Under the pieces are notes generated by a model. It made no database searches, was not told where the DNA came from, and saw nothing but the letters and a program-made list of their open reading frames with translations. Below, piece by piece: positions 50,434 to 62,622 of a stretch of DNA of 64,000 nucleotides (the first letter of the stretch is position 1; each line of letters starts with the position of its first letter). The stretch lies in contig LS998015.1 of the NCBI GenBank assembly GCA_900498245.1, forward strand, positions 1,825,746-1,889,745, given 5' to 3'. Origin of the DNA: Candidatus Zixiibacteriota bacterium. GTDB lineage: Bacteria; Zixibacteria; MSB-5A5; GN15; PGXB01. The translations under genes were made by a program, and so were the position numbers.

Positions 50434-53400
50434 TTGAATTTAAAGGAAATTCTTAGAGGATATAGCTTTTTGGGCTTTCTTCTGTCGCGCAAGGCCTGGG
50501 AAAGTCTGGAATTTGCGAAATTAAGCGGGTCGCTTCACTCAAAAGGCCCGCTTTCAGAAATATATTTATTGCGCCAGGTCGCCGATCGCATTAATGAGAA
50601 AAATATTGCGACAGGCATTTCAGTGCCCGCCGTACGCGCCGGTGAATTGGCTTCGGTGAGTATTCTCGTCGATATTCTTCGATATTTAATTGAAATTTAT
50701 GTTCACGAGGAACAGCCCGGCTCAATCGAGCGGGGATTGAAGTGGGTCGGGGGACAGCAGGGAAAAGATATTGTTTCGCAGCCGCCCCCTTCATTCGTCC
50801 GCCTTTTTCCGCCGGTTTCGGTTCTCCGGGGACAACAATTGGAGCCGGATTATTTCCGCAATTCTCAGGAAACACCATCGGAAAATGATCGCTTGATAGG
50901 CGAGATGACGCTTCTCTATATATCGAACGCCAATCCGGCTTTTCGCCCGTACCTGCTCCTTTTTGGTGATTCCGACCTGAAAACGCAATCGCCCTATGTC
51001 GCCATGATTCAGAATCTGGAGATTTATTTCGCTTCGCAGCCGCCGCTTTCTCATCTCGGGCTGACTCTATTCCAATGTCTCTATGCCCCTATTACGGCTT
51101 CTCCGGATTCTTTAAAAGACCAATTGGAATATATCCGCCGCCACTGGGGGCACTTCCTTCCGCTGGATCTCCTCGAGCGGCTCCTGCTGGCGGTCGATAT
51201 TCTTGAAGAAGAACGGGCCATGCGCGGTTTGGGCGCCGGCCGAATCGAGGCCCTTCGTTTTGACCGTGATTTCTTTGGATATGATCTCGCCTATGCCGAG
51301 CCGGCCGCTTTTAGCCGCGATGCCGATTGGATGTCTAATGTCGTTCTCATGGCCAAAAGCGTCTATGTCTGGCTCTTTCAACTTTCGCAAAAATATCAGC
51401 GGGATATCCGGCTTTTAAGCGACATCCCCGATGAGGAACTGGACCTATTGGCCCGCTGGGGCTTTACCGGTCTCTGGCTCATCGGTCTTTGGGAACGTTC
51501 CGACGCATCCCGCAAAATTAAACAGGCGATGGGCAATCCCGAAGCCGCCTCCTCCGCCTATTCTCTGTATGATTATGTTATCGCTCGTGATCTTGGAGGT
51601 GAGGACGCATTTCAGCAATTGAAGGAACGTGCCGCCCGTCGCGGCCTCCGCCTTGCCAGTGATATGGTCCCTAATCATATGGGCATCTATTCCAAATGGA
51701 CGATTGAACACCCGCAATGGTTTCTTCAATCCGATCACCCCCCCTTCCCGGTTTATCAATACAATGGGATGGATCTTTCCGAGGATCCGCGGGTCTGTCT
51801 TCAGATCGAAGACGGATATTGGCAACAGCGCGATGCCGCCGTCGTTTTCAAACGTATCGATAAATGGACCGGCGACACCAGATATATTTATCACGGCAAT
51901 GATGGTACCAGTATGCCGTGGAATGATACCGCTCAATTGAATTTCCTTATGCCCGAAGTCCGCGAGGCCGTCATACAGACGATTCTGCATGTGGCCAGGA
52001 AATTTTCTATTATTCGTTTTGATGCCGCCATGACCCTGGCCAAGCGCCATTATCAACGGCTTTGGTTTCCACAACCCGGCGAAGGCGGTGCCATTCCGTC
52101 ACGGGCCGAGCACGGTATGACCCGGGCCCAGTTTGATACCCTCATGCCGAAAGAATTCTGGCGCGAGGTCGTCGACCGCGTTGCGCAGGAGGTCCCTGAA
52201 ACCCTGCTTCTGGCCGAGGCTTTTTGGCTCATGGAGGGATATTTTGTTCGCACCCTGGGTATGCATCGAGTCTATAACAGCGCTTTCATGAATATGCTCA
52301 AAATGGAAGACAACGCCAAATACCGGACCACTTTAAAGAATGTCCTCGAATTCAGCCCCGAGGTCATTAAAAGATTTGTCAATTTTATGAATAACCCCGA
52401 CGAACGGAGCGCGGTCGATCAATTCGGGCGTGACGACAAATATTTTGGGGTGGCCGTAATGATGGTGACCATGCCGGGTCTCCCAATGTTTGGTCATGGA
52501 CAAATTGAGGGATTTTCGGAAAAGTATGGCATGGAATATCGTCGCTCCTATTGGGATGAAAAAATAGATTGGGGAATGGTGCATCGACACGAAAACCAGA
52601 TATTCCCTCTGATGCGCCGCCGTCACCTCTTCAGCGGGGCCGCTAATTTTGCTTTCTTTGATTTCGTGACTCCCGACGGCTGGGTGGACGAAAATGTCTT
52701 TGCCTATACCAATCGGGCCGGTGGCGAACGCGCCGTAATTCTTTACAATAATGCCTATAACACGACCCGGGGAACAATTCATACTTCGACCGCCATAAAC
52801 ATCGGCGATGGCGATAAATCTGTCCTGGTCCGACGCTCTCTCGGTGAAGCGCTGGCTCTAAATTCCTCTTCCGATTGTTTTTACGCCTTCCGCGATTATC
52901 AATCCGGACTAGAATACATTCGCTACGCACGTAATCTCATTGAACAGGGGTTATTTGCCGAGTTGCATGCTTATCAATATCATGCCTTCCTGGATTTTCG
53001 GGAAATTCATGATAACGACGGTTCCTGGCGGCGGCTGGAACAGAAACTGGACGGCGCAGGTGTTCCCAATATCGATGATGCCTATCGGGAGATGATTTTG
53101 GAACCGGTTCTCACCCCTTTCCGGCGCCTGGTCGATTACAATCGTCTCAAAAATTTATCAGAAACCTATCCTGACGAGCGAAAAAATATAATTTCAAATG
53201 CGAGCGATTTTTATTCATCCGCCGCCCGCTTCGCCGGTCTGACCGTCGGGATTGCGCCCATAATACAGCGCTTCATGTCCCATCTCGATTTATTGAGAAT
53301 CGCCCCCGGGCGAATCGAGAGCAAATCCAAACGCAAAATAAAACCATTAAAAGTGGATTCTGAAAAGCTTCCGGCATCGCATATTTTGAGCCATGTCATA

Positions 53401-53910
53401 TTTTCCTGGCTGGCATTGAGTCATATGGGGCAACTTTGGCCCGAAAAGGACAAAAGTGAAAAGATAGAATTGACCCTTAAATTTATTTCGGACTGGCTCC
53501 TATTGAAGCAGGTTAGAGATTCATTTGAATCATTGCTTGAAAATCCCGACCAGGCATATTGGGATTCTCAACTTGTTTATATATTACTGTCGCATTCCGA
53601 TTCGTTCATTTTCGCGGAAAAGGGGAAACTGAGTGATGCCATGCGTCAACTTCTGATCGACACGGTCGTCCGCGAGTATTTGCAGGTTCATAGTTTCGAC
53701 AATACCCTCTGGCTTAACAAGGAACGGTTGGTTCGACTCTGCGATTCTCTGGCTGTGACTTCCTGGCTCCATTCCACCGGAGTCGATAGTACTCTCGCCT
53801 CAAATTTCACTAAATTTCATGATTATTTTAATGAAATAAAGGAGTGCGGTGAAAGAGCCCAATACAACATTGATAAACTGCTAGCCCTTCTTTCAAAAAA
53901 TGATCATTAA
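50434..53910 (+). CDS. Very large GH13-family alpha-amylase-like protein
   Basis: A 1158-residue cytoplasmic protein. Residues about 1-260 are a helical region without known match. The GH13 barrel (about 270-760) has region I DMVPNH (Asp410), region II IRFDAAMTL with the nucleophile Asp530, region III LLAEAFW with the acid/base Glu595, and NNPDE with Asp656 as the likely third acid. The last 350 residues are helical again. The size suggests a glucan or maltodextrin enzyme acting in storage metabolism; the reaction cannot be told. The start is TTG, directly after a stop codon in the same frame, with AGGAG about 9 bases upstream; no other start is near. No signal peptide. Confidence 0.85.
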   Translation: MNLKEILRGYSFLGFLLSRKAWESLEFAKLSGSLHSKGPLSEIYLLRQVADRINEKNIATGISVPAVRAGELASVSILVDILRYLIEIYVHEEQPGSIERGLKWVGGQQGKDIVSQPPPSFVRLFPPVSVLRGQQLEPDYFRNSQETPSENDRLIGEMTLLYISNANPAFRPYLLLFGDSDLKTQSPYVAMIQNLEIYFASQPPLSHLGLTLFQCLYAPITASPDSLKDQLEYIRRHWGHFLPLDLLERLLLAVDILEEERAMRGLGAGRIEALRFDRDFFGYDLAYAEPAAFSRDADWMSNVVLMAKSVYVWLFQLSQKYQRDIRLLSDIPDEELDLLARWGFTGLWLIGLWERSDASRKIKQAMGNPEAASSAYSLYDYVIARDLGGEDAFQQLKERAARRGLRLASDMVPNHMGIYSKWTIEHPQWFLQSDHPPFPVYQYNGMDLSEDPRVCLQIEDGYWQQRDAAVVFKRIDKWTGDTRYIYHGNDGTSMPWNDTAQLNFLMPEVREAVIQTILHVARKFSIIRFDAAMTLAKRHYQRLWFPQPGEGGAIPSRAEHGMTRAQFDTLMPKEFWREVVDRVAQEVPETLLLAEAFWLMEGYFVRTLGMHRVYNSAFMNMLKMEDNAKYRTTLKNVLEFSPEVIKRFVNFMNNPDERSAVDQFGRDDKYFGVAVMMVTMPGLPMFGHGQIEGFSEKYGMEYRRSYWDEKIDWGMVHRHENQIFPLMRRRHLFSGAANFAFFDFVTPDGWVDENVFAYTNRAGGERAVILYNNAYNTTRGTIHTSTAINIGDGDKSVLVRRSLGEALALNSSSDCFYAFRDYQSGLEYIRYARNLIEQGLFAELHAYQYHAFLDFREIHDNDGSWRRLEQKLDGAGVPNIDDAYREMILEPVLTPFRRLVDYNRLKNLSETYPDERKNIISNASDFYSSAARFAGLTVGIAPIIQRFMSHLDLLRIAPGRIESKSKRKIKPLKVDSEKLPASHILSHVIFSWLALSHMGQLWPEKDKSEKIELTLKFISDWLLLKQVRDSFESLLENPDQAYWDSQLVYILLSHSDSFIFAEKGKLSDAMRQLLIDTVVREYLQVHSFDNTLWLNKERLVRLCDSLAVTSWLHSTGVDSTLASNFTKFHDYFNEIKECGERAQYNIDKLLALLSKNDH

Positions 53911-54626: not shown

Positions 54627-55175
54627 TTATTGCTTGCCGTAAATATTTCGCAAAACCTTATCTGTTTCTTGGACCAATTCTACCACGCCCCTGTCAAAAT
54701 TACCGAAATTGAAGTACTCAATGGTATTATCCATTATTGCACCATAATCCGTGGTGGCAAATTGCGGCAATCCCCGGCCCACCGAAATCGTCAACTTCTC
54801 CGCCGCATCCGGGCGAATCAGCCAGACTACGCCGTTATTCCCCCCTTCGGTACTCATCCCCTTTCGCCCCAAACCCAACCATCGTCCGTAATGAGTCGCC
54901 CAATCGACTGGATGTTTTACGCTATCAATCAAGACTACCACCATTTCGGCGATTCCATCTTCTTTTAGTTTTTGACAGATAGCATCACCGGTCCGTATGG
55001 TTTCCAGGGATAGAATGTTGACATTATCGATAATCCACGATGTCCCCAGCGGCGGGAAAGCGGGATCCCCTTCCGGCACACTTATATTTTGATCATAGCG
55101 GCCGCTATCCTTCCCGCCGCAAGCCATCCCTATCGGTAGAAGAAGCAATAGCACCCATGATAATGACTTAATCAT
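54627..55175 (-). CDS. TPM-domain lipoprotein (YgcG-like)
   Basis: A 182-residue lipoprotein; the signal ends in PIGMAC at about residue 19. The mature part holds a TPM domain (VNILSLETIRTGDAICQKL, NNGVVWLIRPDAAEKLTISVGRG), a fold seen in membrane-protein quality control and redox-linked envelope proteins. The start at 55175 is chosen because it begins the signal peptide and overlaps the stop of the upstream gene (ATGA). The out-of-frame upstream extension to 55286 only reads through the Cys-Ala tail of that gene. Confidence 0.87.
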   Translation of the reverse strand: MIKSLSWVLLLLLPIGMACGGKDSGRYDQNISVPEGDPAFPPLGTSWIIDNVNILSLETIRTGDAICQKLKEDGIAEMVVVLIDSVKHPVDWATHYGRWLGLGRKGMSTEGGNNGVVWLIRPDAAEKLTISVGRGLPQFATTDYGAIMDNTIEYFNFGNFDRGVVELVQETDKVLRNIYGKQ

Positions 55176-56140
55176 ACTTTTCTCCCGGGCCTGCAGATAG
55201 GACAGGAATGCGTCTCTTTCCGGCTGCATCCGGCCCCGCCTCCTCCGGCGCAGGCGCAGGCACAGGCGCAAGATACACAGGCGCACGCGCAGGAAAATCC
55301 GCCGCCTCCGAATCCGCCGCCACCCCCGGTGCTTCGTCCGCCGCTTCCGCCCGAACTGCTTCCTCCTCGTCCCCCGAATATCCCCCCGTAAAATATGCTT
55401 CCGCCCGAATATTTCTTTTTCTTTGAAGAGAGAAGGGCGACAATTAAAAAGAAAACTATAAATCCGAAAATAAATATAATTAATGGTGAATATCCTGAAT
55501 CCCCGCCGCCTTCCTTCTTCAGCCTATTCTGATTTATTCCCACCGGGAATATTTTTTTGGGAATTGAAATCGATATTGACAATTTCTTCCCTCGCGATAG
55601 ATCGGTTTTGCGCCACGACATCGCGTTACCGGCTAAGTTCGTCGGCTTCGGCTCGGCTGTAACTGTATTAATGTCGGCGAAAAATACGACTGTAACGTCG
55701 AGCGTATCTATAGCCGCCCGATCATACCACCCCGGGGTAAAATCCAGTTTATAATTGTCTTTGTCGGCGTAGAACAGTTTGTTCTGAGCCAGAGTAAAGT
55801 CGATCTCAAAAGTCTCGCCCTCGCGGTAGTCCTGATTCAAATCAAGCCGTACCCCCGACCAACTCCCCTGGCTGGCATTGGAAACCTGTGTTGCCGCTCC
55901 CCCGAATCTCTCTATCCTGAAATCTCCACCCGAGGTTCCCACCGTGATCCAGGGAATATGGCCCCCGGTGACTTTCCATTTCTGATAATATTCGATTCGT
56001 ACCGTTCCATTGGATGATGGCGTCAGGGTTACCCGATAATCTAATATCTCATAGGTCCCGGTGTCTCGAGCCGAAATCGGCCCGGCAATTATTGAAAACA
56101 ATAGCCCGACTGCGAATATCAGAACGAATCTTTTTATCAT
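55172..56140 (-). CDS. DUF2207-like membrane protein with a Cys-Ala repeat tail
   Basis: A 322-residue protein. After a signal peptide (about 5-24) comes a beta-rich DUF2207-type domain (about 28-195), a membrane helix (219-237), a Gly/Ser-rich stretch (246-282), and an unusual tail: cysteines at 284, 286, 288, 291, 293, 295, 297, 305, 313 and 316, most separated by single alanines, ending in a GGGGAGC turn and a CPIC pair. Ala and Cys codons vary along the repeat (GCG/GCC, TGC/TGT), so it is kept at protein level. It overlaps the upstream radical SAM gene and the downstream TPM gene by four bases each. The tail is a likely substrate for that enzyme. A metal-binding tail is the main alternative. 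Confidence 0.82.
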   Translation of the reverse strand: MIKRFVLIFAVGLLFSIIAGPISARDTGTYEILDYRVTLTPSSNGTVRIEYYQKWKVTGGHIPWITVGTSGGDFRIERFGGAATQVSNASQGSWSGVRLDLNQDYREGETFEIDFTLAQNKLFYADKDNYKLDFTPGWYDRAAIDTLDVTVVFFADINTVTAEPKPTNLAGNAMSWRKTDLSRGKKLSISISIPKKIFPVGINQNRLKKEGGGDSGYSPLIIFIFGFIVFFLIVALLSSKKKKYSGGSIFYGGIFGGRGGSSSGGSGGRSTGGGGGFGGGGFSCACACVSCACACACAGGGGAGCSRKETHSCPICRPGRKV

Positions 56141-57519
56141 TGAGCTTCTCCCGCCTTCTGCCCGCTGTGGCGTTCGGATTTATCTAGCGGGCAACCCCCG
56201 CCGCATGAACCTTCAAACTGACAGATTCCGCAGGCTTCCGGCTTCATTAGATGATTGCGAAGGGCCCGGCAGGTCGGATGTTTCCAAATAGATTTCCATT
56301 CATCCGTCAAAATATTCCCGACCGTTTCCGGCCAGGATTGACAGGGAAGCACCGTGCCGTCCGGCTGAATTGTCATATTATGCGCCGCCGCCGAACAGGC
56401 TTTGATGCCGAACCCCAGCTGCATCGGATTTATTCCTTTATTGTAACAAGTGGGAGAGTACCACTGGAAATTTATGCTCAATTTATCTGCCAATTCGCAT
56501 CCCTTGAGCAATACCGTCTTTAGTTCGTCATCACTTAGCCCGTGCTCTTCCTTTAGTTTTATGCCTCCGCCACTGCATATCAAGGTATTGCAGGCCATAT
56601 TTTTTATGCCCAAATCGTGGAGCCAATTCATTGTCTCCGGGAATTTTTCGGCATTAATCTTGGTCAGCGTGGTATTGGTCACAACCTGCAGCCCGGCCGC
56701 AAGCGCCTCCTTTAATCCGGCGGCGGTTTTTTCGAACGATCCAATCGCCCCGGTCACTTTGTCATGGATTTGATTATCATCCGATTCCACCGTTACCTGA
56801 ACATAATCCAGACTCGCCTCCCTCAATGGCCTCGCCAAATCCATCAGCGTTGTACCGTTGGTCACCAGGCCGGTGACAAACTCTTCGGCGCGGCCGACCA
56901 GATCCACGATATCTTTGCGCATTGTCGGTTCGCCGCCGGTAAAAACCACCTGGGGGATTCCGAGCTTCCAGATTATCTCAAAAACGTGGACCCATTCGTC
57001 GAGCGTCAATTCCTTGGTTATTTCTTTGTCGCCGACATAACATTTCTGACACTCCAGATTACATCTATATGTTACCGCCAGATCCATCCGCGCCGGAGCG
57101 CTCCAATCGCCGTATTTAATTTCCCTGGCCGTCAAACCGGCCTCTATCGGGCAGGTTCCTTTGGCGATTTCCATCAGGGTACCGAAAATTCTGTTTAAAT
57201 CGGAAAAAATCATATCACGAGATACTCGGCCTCTTCCCAGTGAGAATTTTCTGGTATATTTCGCGCTCATCTTGTCAACCACGTATTTCATCACCGCATC
57301 CGATTCATCCCCATCCCCCTGTTGATAAAGCCACATGGCCTCGATCAGGAAGGCCACGAAATCGGCCGCTGTCTGATCCAAAATAAGCGGCGGCTGCTGC
57401 CCGTCGATCCAGAGGAAATTATCCCGGATGGGGTCTTTCAGGCGAAGATGAAAACGATGACCGTTAATGGTGGCGTGATGAACGCCGTCGCTTTTAAATC
57501 GCGGCTTTTCCCCTACCAT
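56137..57519 (-). CDS. Radical SAM/SPASM peptide-modifying enzyme
   Basis: A 460-residue radical SAM protein. The AdoMet cluster motif CxxxCxxC is Cys153, Cys157 and Cys160 (TYRCNLECQKC), followed by the GGEPTMRKD motif. The C-terminus is a SPASM domain with cysteines in KACSAAAHN, VLPCQSW, HPTCRAL and a final CGICQ...CGGGC set for auxiliary clusters. Residues 1-110 form a separate domain (QPPLILDQTAADFVAFL) resembling the PqqD/RRE fold used to bind leader peptides. Such enzymes install thioethers or other crosslinks at cysteines. It heads the operon and its stop overlaps the start of the Cys-Ala protein by four bases. Confidence 0.92.
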   Translation of the reverse strand: MVGEKPRFKSDGVHHATINGHRFHLRLKDPIRDNFLWIDGQQPPLILDQTAADFVAFLIEAMWLYQQGDGDESDAVMKYVVDKMSAKYTRKFSLGRGRVSRDMIFSDLNRIFGTLMEIAKGTCPIEAGLTAREIKYGDWSAPARMDLAVTYRCNLECQKCYVGDKEITKELTLDEWVHVFEIIWKLGIPQVVFTGGEPTMRKDIVDLVGRAEEFVTGLVTNGTTLMDLARPLREASLDYVQVTVESDDNQIHDKVTGAIGSFEKTAAGLKEALAAGLQVVTNTTLTKINAEKFPETMNWLHDLGIKNMACNTLICSGGGIKLKEEHGLSDDELKTVLLKGCELADKLSINFQWYSPTCYNKGINPMQLGFGIKACSAAAHNMTIQPDGTVLPCQSWPETVGNILTDEWKSIWKHPTCRALRNHLMKPEACGICQFEGSCGGGCPLDKSERHSGQKAGEAQ

Positions 57520-60486: not shown

Positions 60487-60627
60487 TTATGCGTCAACAG
60501 ATTATCCTCTGCCGGCCTCCCGTCTCCCTGTAATTCAGGCATTAATAATTAAATAAGTCGGGAAGAAAACCGTCCTTTCTATGTATCCCCACTGGAAGCA
60601 TCAATCAATTATTAAAGGAGGTTGGCC

Positions 60628-62622
60628 ATGCGTTCCAGTAATTCCAAGGCAAAATTCCCCACCCTTTTCTTCTCCTTCATCCTGCTTGTCTTTTTCCAGT
60701 CTGCGCTATCAGGGGAAATTAAGGGCCGGGTGACAGATGCCGGCGATGGTTCCCCTGTTCGGGGAGCATCTATCAACATCGTCGGATTCAAGAGCGGCGC
60801 TATAACTGACAACGATGGTCGATATCGCATTATGAACGTACCCTCCGGGACCTTCATCTTAAGGGCCACCGCCTTAGAATATGAACAATGTGAAATCAAA
60901 GATATTGTCCTGAAAGATAAGGGCATAACCATAGTCGATTTTCAGTTGAAGAGAACGGTTTCGGAGTTGGGCAAAGTCATTAAAGTCGAGGCCGAAAGAG
61001 AAGCCGTAAATAAATACTCACCTCAGAACATGGTAAAACTGGATGCCGATGCCACCCGGACCTCACCGGATGAAAAAAACGGGACCATTCGACGAAAAGT
61101 GGCGCCTGTGCCCTCAACGGCAAGTCCTAATTTCTTCGCTCCCCAATGCATCAATCCTCCCGGACAAAAAGTCGCCCCATATCCTAATTATCCTTACGGC
61201 CCATCAACCGGCGGAAATACTCCTGTCAATGGTCAGCCCTATGATGCCATGTTTTTCAAAAGCTACGGCACCAATCCTTTTATTGATACGGAAGATGACC
61301 CTCTTTCTACTTTTGCCGCCGATGTTGATGACGCCTCTTTCGTTATGGCCCGGGCCTATCTGAAAGACGGGAACTTGCCGCCTGATGAAGCCATTCGAAC
61401 CGAGGAATTCATTAATCATTTCAAATACGACTATGCGCCTCCCGATAACGGGCCATTCAATGTCGATGCCGAAGGGGCGCCCTATCCTTTCGGTCGCAAA
61501 TCCATCTTGTTGAAAATCGGCATCAAGGGACGCGAAATTGATGTCGAATCGCGTAAACCGGCCAACTTGATTTTCGTCATTGATGTCTCCGGATCCATGG
61601 CCACCGGGGGCCGTCTGGAGATGGTTAAAGATGCCCTTCGCATCCTGGTTGATAATCTTTTTGAGGATGATCGTATCGGCATTGTCGCCTATAGCACCTC
61701 CGCCTGGAAAGTCCTCCCTCCCACTTCAGTTTACTATCGGCACGAAATATTGTCGGCTATCGAATCTCTTCATCCCACGAATTCCACTAATGCCGAGGCC
61801 GGTCTGCGGCTGGGGTACGAATTGGCCGATCGCATCTTTGACCGCGATCGCATCAATCGTCTTATTCTCTGCTCCGACGGTGTTGCCAATGTCGGGAATA
61901 CTTCAGCCGATGATATGTTGCAATGGATTAAAGGATATGCCGAACGAGGAATTTTTCTTACTGCCGTCGGATTCGGAATCAGCAATTACAATGATATTCT
62001 TCTTGAACAGCTGGGAGATAAAGGAAATGGCAACTACTACTATGTCAATAGTCGGGTGGATGCTCGCAAAATATTTCTTGAAAATCTGAACGGCACTCTT
62101 CAGGTGATTGCCAAAGATGTCAAGATTCAAGTCTCTTTTGATCCGGCCACTGTCGCCAGCTATCGTTTGCTCGGCTACGAAAATCGCGATGTTGCCGATG
62201 AGCAATTTCGCAACGATAGGGTCGATGGCGGCGAAATTGGCGCCGGTCATCAAGTAACCGCCCTTTACGAAATCAAGCTTCGCCCCGGCCGCACTTCCCC
62301 CCATATAGCGGATCTAAACATTCGCTTCAAGCATCCCAATGCATCTCAGGCCGGAGAGTTCCAATACTCGCTGACCACCAGATATATTCGTAATGATTTT
62401 GACAATGCTTCCGCCGATTTCAAAATCGCCGCGGCGGCCGCGCAATTCGCCGAAATCCTGCGCAAATCATATTGGGCCAAAGACGCCCGTCTGTCTGATG
62501 TTCAGGCGGTGGTCAGGGAGGTCATGAGAGAAAGACATACCTCGGAAATATCCGAACTCCTTGACATGATTCAGAACGCAGAGCGACTTGAAAACCGCGT
62601 TGTCAATCGGGACCTGGATTAG
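60628..62622 (+). CDS. VWA-domain protein with carboxypeptidase-like N-terminal domain (YfbK type)
   Basis: A 664-residue exported protein. A signal peptide (about 8-28) leads to a carboxypeptidase-regulatory-like beta domain (GRVTDAGDGSPVRGASI, 33-105). A Pro-rich linker follows and then the YfbK N-terminal region (STFAADVDDASFVMARAYL). The von Willebrand A domain (about 310-480) has the MIDAS motif DVSGS with ILCSDGVANVG as its later metal site. A C-terminal domain (VKIQVSFDPATVASYRLLGYENR) matches the DUF3520 region of the family. ATG at 60628 has AAGGAGG 7 bases upstream; the in-frame TTG before it is less likely. A strong terminator follows. Confidence 0.92.
   Translation: MRSSNSKAKFPTLFFSFILLVFFQSALSGEIKGRVTDAGDGSPVRGASINIVGFKSGAITDNDGRYRIMNVPSGTFILRATALEYEQCEIKDIVLKDKGITIVDFQLKRTVSELGKVIKVEAEREAVNKYSPQNMVKLDADATRTSPDEKNGTIRRKVAPVPSTASPNFFAPQCINPPGQKVAPYPNYPYGPSTGGNTPVNGQPYDAMFFKSYGTNPFIDTEDDPLSTFAADVDDASFVMARAYLKDGNLPPDEAIRTEEFINHFKYDYAPPDNGPFNVDAEGAPYPFGRKSILLKIGIKGREIDVESRKPANLIFVIDVSGSMATGGRLEMVKDALRILVDNLFEDDRIGIVAYSTSAWKVLPPTSVYYRHEILSAIESLHPTNSTNAEAGLRLGYELADRIFDRDRINRLILCSDGVANVGNTSADDMLQWIKGYAERGIFLTAVGFGISNYNDILLEQLGDKGNGNYYYVNSRVDARKIFLENLNGTLQVIAKDVKIQVSFDPATVASYRLLGYENRDVADEQFRNDRVDGGEIGAGHQVTALYEIKLRPGRTSPHIADLNIRFKHPNASQAGEFQYSLTTRYIRNDFDNASADFKIAAAAAQFAEILRKSYWAKDARLSDVQAVVREVMRERHTSEISELLDMIQNAERLENRVVNRDLD

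What the first reader, a model, noticed from the sequence alone, without database searches (positions are those of the whole stretch)
55172..57519. Radical SAM/SPASM enzyme coupled to a membrane protein with a Cys-Ala repeat tail
The DUF2207-like protein ends in ten cysteines within its last 39 residues, seven of them in a CACAC-VS-CACACAC pattern between a glycine-rich region and a GGGGAGC turn. The gene overlaps, by ATGA, a radical SAM enzyme with SPASM clusters and an N-terminal domain that resembles a leader-binding RRE. Sactipeptide-type enzymes crosslink cysteines, so the tail may be a substrate on a large, membrane-bound carrier instead of a small peptide. I have a vague memory of similar Cys-Ala tails in other DUF2207-type proteins but cannot name a described function.
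Basis: partly seen in the sequence, partly recalled or inferred. Interest (0 to 1): 0.88.

Follow-up and report, generated by a model that had tools for sequence, protein, structure and literature searches.

The report
Enzyme paired with cysteine-alanine protein tails
A membrane protein ending in an alternating cysteine-alanine tail is encoded right beside a radical enzyme of the kind that rebuilds peptides, and the same pair turns up together across many bacterial and archaeal phyla, which points to an apparently undescribed way of chemically modifying the inner end of a membrane protein.

Summary
The 322-aa protein (56140-55172, -) has a signal peptide, an exported DUF2207-type domain, one membrane helix and an inward-facing Gly-rich tail that holds all ten of its cysteines (SCACACVSCACACACAGGGGAGC...CPIC). 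It overlaps by ATGA a radical SAM/SPASM enzyme with a PqqD-like RRE domain, and by a second ATGA a TPM-domain gene, followed by LemA. In 88 of 114 tail genes the enzyme lies within 500 bases on the same strand; nearly all the rest lie at edges of stored DNA in genomes that hold it. In unbiased genome sets enzyme and tail co-occur almost perfectly (10/10 against 0/110; 17/17 against 0/123), while ordinary DUF2207 proteins occur without the enzyme. A sister enzyme clade pairs instead with a (CHSA)n tail. So the tail is very probably the enzyme's substrate. Thioether crosslinking is the likeliest chemistry but unproven; the cellular role is unknown. No described family or held paper covers the pair. 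Best filed as a new variant of RRE-guided radical SAM peptide modification.

The parts
56137..57519 (-). Radical SAM/SPASM enzyme with N-terminal RRE-like domain, 460 aa (P0002), the presumed tail-modifying enzyme
   Evidence: Pfam Radical_SAM 1.5e-24 and SPASM 1.2e-9; AlphaFold pLDDT 90.6; Foldseek best hits SkfB, SuiB, CteB
57163..57483 (-). RRE (PqqD-like) domain of the enzyme, residues 13-119: four strands then three helices
   Evidence: PqqD Pfam matches in 34/63 homologues; Foldseek top hit TbiB1 RRE with bound leader, prob 0.96, E 0.07
57040..57063 (-). CX3CX2C motif (C153, C157, C160) for the SAM-cleaving 4Fe-4S cluster
   Evidence: Invariant in 63/63 aligned homologues
56191..56397 (-). 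SPASM region, residues 375-443: C375/C393/C443 and CX2CX5CX3C
   Evidence: C375 and C393 in 63/63 and C443 in 62/63; C430/C433/C439 in 41/41 non-Bacillota-type and 0/22 Bacillota-type enzymes
55172..56140 (-). Tail carrier, 322 aa: signal peptide, exported DUF2207-type domain, one membrane helix, Gly-rich linker, Cys-Ala tail
   Evidence: domain homologous to the other tailed carriers, hhalign 99.9% E 8.8e-32
55511..56068 (-). Exported (DUF2207-type) domain of the carrier, residues 25-210
55427..55483 (-). Predicted transmembrane helix, residues 220-238, followed by KKKK (tail on the cytosolic side)
   Evidence: Hydropathy and charge count; same topology reported for DUF2207 proteins (PMC10457818)
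55370..55411 (-). Conserved juxtamembrane motif YSGGSIFYGGIFGG, candidate RRE-binding site (inference)
   Evidence: GG-IFYGG kept in the four sister carriers L002, L045, L060, L066
55226..55294 (-). Cys-Ala tail, residues 283-305 SCACACVSCACACACAGGGGAGC, presumed site of modification
   Evidence: Identical in 5 carriers of this subtype; middle residue of CxC is Ala in 562/569 cases over 114 tails
55175..55225 (-). Carrier C-terminus SRKETHSCPICRPGRKV with a CPxC pair
   Evidence: H-x-CPxC kept in L002, L045, L060, L066
54627..55175 (-). TPM-domain protein (P0003), overlaps the carrier by ATGA
   Evidence: Pfam TPM_phosphatase 8.5e-13; same position in L002 and L066
53969..54595 (-). LemA family protein (P0004), last gene of the presumed operon
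   Evidence: Pfam LemA 6.1e-15; same position in L002, L045, L066

Best explanation
A dedicated post-translational modification system. The RRE domain of the radical SAM/SPASM enzyme docks on the cytosolic, Gly-rich C-terminal segment of a DUF2207-type membrane protein, and the enzyme then modifies the alternating Cys-Ala tail, most probably by abstracting hydrogen from residues between the cysteines and closing Cys-S-to-carbon thioether bridges (about -2 Da each). The modified tail stays on its membrane carrier as a compact, thiol-masked structure facing the cytosol. Shown: the gene pair, its strong conservation and co-occurrence, tail conservation, the enzyme's domain make-up. Strongly inferred: the tail is the substrate (about 0.85). 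Inferred: thioether chemistry (about 0.5); the tail is retained rather than cleaved off (about 0.7). The physiological role (stress or envelope-related, from one DUF2207 mutant) is a guess.
For: (1) 88/114 tail genes have the enzyme within 500 nt on the same strand, 39 upstream and 49 downstream, 3 more within 2 kb; of 21 genomes behind loci with none in the stored stretch, 19 hold a homologue at E<=1e-65. (2) Unbiased sets: in Lachnospiraceae 10 of 120 genomes have the enzyme and all 10 have a tail beside it; none of the other 110 has the tail pattern; in a Chloroflexota class 17/17 tail-positive genomes have the enzyme and 0 of 123 enzyme-negative genomes have the tail; Fisher p 8.6e-15 and 7.8e-16, relatedness not corrected. 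(3) Domain control: 14 of those 120 genomes have a bona fide DUF2207 protein but only 2 of the 14 have the enzyme, and three such proteins end in Gly/Ser without Cys: the enzyme follows the tail, not the domain. (4) A sister enzyme clade is next to DUF2207 carriers with another Cys repeat, (CHSA)n, in 5 genomes. Tail subtypes follow enzyme clades: 7 changes against a shuffled mean of 27.8. (5) The enzyme looks like a peptide maturase: RRE, nearest solved structures SkfB, SuiB, CteB. (6) Aux I has three conserved Cys, so an open site as in the sactisynthases CteB and SkfB (PMC6231123). (7) Ala is a known acceptor in thuricin CD, and QhpD makes thioethers inside a protein (PMC5682303).
Against: No chemistry observed. 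Short-range Cys-Ala alternation is unlike the characterised sactipeptides. L085 (G133) and L100 (G148) have a tail but no enzyme at E<=1e-30 in their small genomes of unstated completeness. G280 and G334 have the enzyme with no tail found beside it, and in G375 enzyme and tail lie on different contigs. The RRE is not called by Pfam on the window enzyme itself. Many loci come from MAGs.
Confidence: 0.66

Rival explanations
1. The enzyme is a radical SAM epimerase that turns alternate residues of the tail into D-amino acids, giving an L/D-alternating helix with no mass change, as in polytheonamide-type proteusins and epipeptides.
For: Strict alternation (Ala in 562/569 CxC positions) recalls the near-perfect alternate epimerisation of polytheonamide (PMC5682303); epimerases are also radical SAM enzymes with an extra Fe-S cluster; some clusters carry a methyltransferase.
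Against: Does not need so many invariant Cys, nor Cys at spacing four in the (CHSA)n tails. Closest solved folds are crosslinking maturases.
Confidence: 0.13
2. The tail is a metal- or Fe-S-binding ribbon of free thiols; the enzyme modifies it little or only helps load it.
For: CxC repeats resemble metallothionein motifs (general knowledge); the (CHSA)n tails add His at every repeat; zinc-ribbon membrane protein genes sit in many clusters.
Against: A metal-binding tail would not need a dedicated RRE-bearing radical SAM enzyme in nearly every genome. Ala, not only Cys, is near-invariant.
Confidence: 0.13
3. The membrane protein is only a precursor: the modified tail is cut off at the Gly-rich stretch and released as a small RiPP.
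For: Gly-rich stretch before the core; the enzyme has a RiPP-type RRE.
Against: The tail is predicted on the cytosolic side; no peptidase or exporter gene recurs among the commonest neighbour clusters; the exported domain is itself conserved.
Confidence: 0.12
4. The enzyme oxidises individual Cys (formylglycine-like, as anaerobic sulfatase-maturating enzymes do) without crosslinks.
For: anSME folds are among the Foldseek hits and act on Cys in large proteins.
Against: No sulfatase-type CxPxR motif in the tail; anSME Aux clusters are fully ligated (PMC6231123) whereas three Aux I Cys are conserved here.
Confidence: 0.05
5. Coincidental operon neighbours; the enzyme acts on something else and the tail is an unmodified low-complexity end.
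For: Low-complexity Gly-rich ends are usual in DUF2207 proteins (PMC10457818).
Against: Near-perfect two-way co-occurrence, two gene orders, matched tail and enzyme clades, and a domain control.
Confidence: 0.04

Closest known systems
Sactipeptide and ranthipeptide maturases (SkfB, AlbA, CteB)
   Same: RRE + radical SAM + SPASM or Twitch architecture; Cys-rich substrate region; three Aux I cysteines; best solved-structure matches
   Different: Substrate is a roughly 300-700 aa membrane protein with an alternating Cys-Ala repeat at its cytosolic C-terminus, not a short leader-core peptide; no recurrent exporter or peptidase seen; chemistry not shown
QhpD (quinohemoprotein amine dehydrogenase thioether synthase)
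   Same: Radical SAM enzyme that makes Cys thioethers in a protein rather than a released peptide (PMC5682303)
   Different: Different substrate protein; Cys-to-Asp/Glu links; the Cys-Ala repeats here contain no acidic residue
Anaerobic sulfatase-maturating enzymes (anSME)
   Same: SPASM radical SAM enzyme acting on Cys of a large protein
   Different: Fully ligated Aux clusters; single sulfatase-type target motif; no RRE (general knowledge)
Proteusin and epipeptide radical SAM epimerases (PoyD, YydG)
   Same: Radical SAM modification of alternating residues (PMC5682303)
   Different: Precursors are peptides; no Cys repeat needed
DUF2207 membrane proteins (Pfam PF09972)
   Same: Signal peptide, extracellular N-domain, cytosolic C-terminus with a Gly/Ser-rich stretch (PMC10457818); remote homology of the carrier
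   Different: Ordinary DUF2207 proteins lack the Cys repeat and the enzyme

Membership tests
Radical SAM/SPASM enzymes | Radical_SAM domain with CX3CX2C | tested here: met
   Pfam 87.5 bits against cut-off 29.5; C153/C157/C160 invariant
Radical SAM/SPASM enzymes | SPASM domain with CX2CX5CX3C | tested here: met
   Pfam SPASM 38.7 bits against cut-off 21.5; C430/433/439/443. Bacillota-type homologues lack the first three
RRE (PqqD-like) domain | Strands followed by three helices, PqqD-like | tested here: met
   AlphaFold E-E-E-E-H-H-H; PqqD in 34/63 homologues, over cut-off in the (CHSA)n enzyme L184; Foldseek top hit TbiB1 RRE. Not called by Pfam on the window sequence alone
Sactipeptides | Short precursor peptide with N-terminal leader and Cys-rich core | tested here: not met
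   322-aa membrane protein with the repeat at its C-terminus
Sactipeptides | Cys-S to C-alpha thioether bonds | not testable with these tools
   Needs mass spectrometry and NMR
Sactipeptides | Peptidase and exporter genes in the cluster | tested here: inconclusive
   Not among the recurrent neighbour clusters in 8-kb loci, apart from an ABC ATPase cluster in 10 loci
DUF2207 (PF09972) | Match over the Pfam gathering score | tested here: inconclusive
   None for the window carrier; 6/103 tailed carriers at E<=0.01; 31.0 bits against 24.4 for the (CHSA)n carrier L184; profile links 99.9% and 97.4%
TIGR04222 membrane proteins | Score over the NCBIfam cut-off | tested here: not met
   No match for P0001; 5/103 homologues, best E 3.2e-4
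Known NCBIfam radical SAM equivalogs | Score over an equivalog cut-off | tested here: not met
   Best 115.5 bits against cut-off 500

The most novel reading that the evidence does not exclude
A widespread, ancient or much-transferred system, present in both bacteria and archaea, in which RRE-guided radical SAM enzymes rebuild repetitive Cys-Ala or Cys-His-Ser-Ala tails on the cytosolic end of DUF2207 membrane proteins, giving a permanent cofactor-like or structural element of the membrane protein itself, sometimes with a pseudo-radical-SAM partner and a methyltransferase.
Probability: 0.55. Interest if true: 0.92.

Novelty: new variant of a known kind. Interest (0 to 1): 0.86.

Why it matters
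It would extend RRE-guided radical SAM chemistry from small secreted peptides to a membrane protein kept by the cell, in many phyla of bacteria and archaea, including gut Lachnospiraceae and Asgard archaea. It gives DUF2207, a common family of unknown function, a testable biochemical handle, and offers a very regular substrate on which to study how these enzymes choose bonds. Named-strain hosts exist (Ornatilinea apprima P3M-1, Gemmiger formicilis ATCC 27749).

Tried and rejected
Low-complexity artefact: rejected, since tail amino acids are fixed while codons vary and enzyme and tail co-occur. Defence system: PADLOC gave only generic viperin-like radical SAM matches for the enzyme. Known NCBIfam maturase or NCBIfam carrier family: none. 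Five loci of the pattern scan were chance reading frames (L021, L022, L033, L043, L063), and the four viral-contig hits gave no support. Solved structures for the carrier: none convincing. Literature: the motif, DUF2207 with radical SAM, and related wordings were searched; only 7 papers in the held open-access library mention DUF2207 and none found describes the pair. A direct profile comparison of the window carriers with the (CHSA)n carriers failed; homology rests on the intermediate set. The comparison is partly circular (P0001 is in A1) and is not used. The careful tree did not finish; the quick tree is used.
Full report
1. Observation. Window 56140-55172 (-) encodes a 322-aa protein and 57519-56137 (-) a 460-aa radical SAM/SPASM enzyme; they overlap by ATGA. 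All ten Cys of the carrier are in its last 39 residues. The Cys-Ala motif occurs only there in the window and never in 100 shuffles. The carrier overlaps by a second ATGA a TPM-domain gene, and LemA follows, so the presumed operon is enzyme, carrier, TPM, LemA. The only same-genus genome available has the same order; carrier 72% and enzyme 76% identical. Over a 27-residue stretch covering the tail, 25 residues are identical with 12 synonymous codon changes, and the 23 residues SCACACVSCACACACAGGGGAGC are all kept. That is selection on the protein. None of the other 130 genomes searched in the phylum has the tail pattern, and none of the other 58 relatives has the enzyme at E<=1e-50.

2. Spread. 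Record titles name Bacillota (Lachnospiraceae, Oscillospiraceae), Chloroflexota, Acidobacteriota, Aminicenantes, Krumholzibacteriia, Zixiibacteriota, Coatesbacteria, Pirellulales, Armatimonadetes and, among archaea, Heimdall-, Hodarch- and Sigynarchaeota, Bathyarchaeota, Thermoproteota and Methanomassiliicoccales. Many are MAGs, so single records may be misbinned. Of 114 tail genes, 88 have a homologue of the window enzyme within 500 nt on the same strand (39 upstream, 49 downstream), 3 within 2 kb, 21 have none but lie near an end of the stored DNA, and 2 have room but none. Of 21 genomes behind loci lacking it in the stored stretch, 19 hold a homologue at E<=1e-65; G133 (L085) and G148 (L100) do not at 1e-30. 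A few of the adjacent homologues are pseudo-enzymes without CX3CX2C.

3. Two-way co-occurrence in sets not chosen by the tail. Lachnospiraceae, 120 genomes: 7 with the exact tail pattern, 10 with the enzyme (E<=1e-131); all 7 are among the 10, and the other three have the variant CACACACASSGRAGC beside the enzyme. Class of Ornatilinea (Chloroflexota), 150 genomes: 17 with a CACAGCACAC-type tail, all among 27 with the enzyme (E<=1e-100); 0 of 123 without the enzyme have the tail. Of the ten enzyme-positive genomes without that tail, five have a (CHSA)n tail beside the enzyme, G281 has the enzyme at a contig end, G403 has it on a 3.5-kb contig, G280 and G334 have no adjacent carrier, and G299 was not followed further. 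In G375 enzyme and tail lie on different contigs. Fisher p values ignore relatedness. Control: 14 of the 120 Lachnospiraceae genomes have a DUF2207 protein over the Pfam cut-off but only two of these have the enzyme; three examined end in Gly/Ser without Cys.

4. Tail rules. Between two cysteines the residue is Ala in 562 of 569 cases; about 228 of these are forced by the search pattern, so about 334 of 341 unforced. Subtypes: GGGR at the end (50), GGGRAGC then mostly K-D-F-Y (46), GGGGAGC (4, the window type), others in archaea. Subtypes follow enzyme clades on a quick tree (7 changes, shuffled mean 27.8), though shared ancestry alone can do this. The (CHSA)n tails (five genomes; e.g. [25 protein letters not shown]...) belong to carriers and enzymes of which the one scanned matches DUF2207 and PqqD over cut-off.

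5. Enzyme. AlphaFold model pLDDT 90.6, N-domain strands then three helices, the RRE order (definition in PMC12710340). The N-domain alone has as best Foldseek hit the lasso-peptide RRE TbiB1 with bound leader (prob 0.96 but E 0.07); PqqD matches 34 of 63 homologues, with the search run at E<=1. Full-length best hits: SkfB, SuiB, CteB. C375 and C393 are in 63/63 and C443 in 62/63; the other SPASM cysteines are in 41/41 non-Bacillota-type and 0/22 Bacillota-type enzymes, which are therefore Twitch-like, as SkfB is (PMC6231123). Three conserved Aux I cysteines suggest an open site; this is inferred from sequence.

6. Carrier. Most full-length carriers have a signal peptide, one main membrane helix near residue 230 and more positive charge after it than before (67 of 100; 20 the other way), so the tail should face the cytosol. 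The same topology, with a Gly/Ser-rich inner end, is reported for DUF2207 proteins (PMC10457818). Profile comparison links the window carriers to the other tailed carriers at 99.9%, and those to the (CHSA)n carriers at 97.4%.

7. Neighbours. Chloroflexota and archaeal loci often read zinc-ribbon membrane protein, carrier, enzyme, pseudo-enzyme without CX3CX2C, class I methyltransferase (19 and 24 loci for ribbon and methyltransferase). The window type has TPM and LemA.

8. Mechanism. Shown: the pair, its conservation and co-occurrence. Strongly inferred: the tail is the substrate. Inferred: RRE docking near the tail, thioether formation, retention on the carrier. Ala is an acceptor in thuricin CD and QhpD crosslinks a protein (PMC5682303), so both elements have precedent. 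The role in the cell is open; the one DUF2207 mutant found in the held library, in Streptococcus mutans, has acid, oxidative-stress and biofilm defects (PMC10457818), but that protein was not examined here for a tail.

9. Novelty. No NCBIfam family covers carrier or enzyme and no held paper was found; the library lacks most subscription journals, so a prior description cannot be excluded. It works like a RiPP maturation system but fails the short-precursor criterion of sactipeptides, so it is filed as a new variant.

Noticed in passing
L181-L185 (e.g. L184:2310-4061): DUF2207 carriers with a different C-terminal repeat, (CHSA)n, directly beside a sister-clade radical SAM enzyme: a second tail type.
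   Followed up: partly
L012:4123-5316, L037:4275-5450, L114:5246-6424, L017:1670-2977: Pseudo-radical-SAM proteins lacking CX3CX2C next to the active enzyme or the tail carrier; possible docking partners.
   Followed up: partly
L114:6421-7173, L012:428-829: A class I methyltransferase (24 loci) and a small zinc-ribbon membrane protein (19 loci) recur in the Chloroflexota and archaeal clusters.
   Followed up: partly
L069:2065-3744, L089:2807-4429: Active radical SAM enzymes with their own Gly/Cys-rich C-terminal extension (GGGCSGCSGSCGTGG), next to a tail-less carrier paralogue.
   Followed up: no
Bacillota-type enzymes in alignment A3: All 22 lack three of the SPASM cysteines that all 41 others have: a clean SPASM/Twitch split inside one enzyme family.
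   Followed up: partly
L025: Three carrier-like genes in tandem behind one enzyme, two of them with differing Cys-rich tails.
   Followed up: no
window 50434-53910 (+): A 1158-aa ORF resembling an alpha-amylase-type glycoside hydrolase just past the operon on the opposite strand (by eye).
   Followed up: no
window 60622-62622 (+): A 666-aa ORF that looks like a von Willebrand factor A protein with an N-terminal carboxypeptidase-regulatory-like domain (by eye).
   Followed up: no
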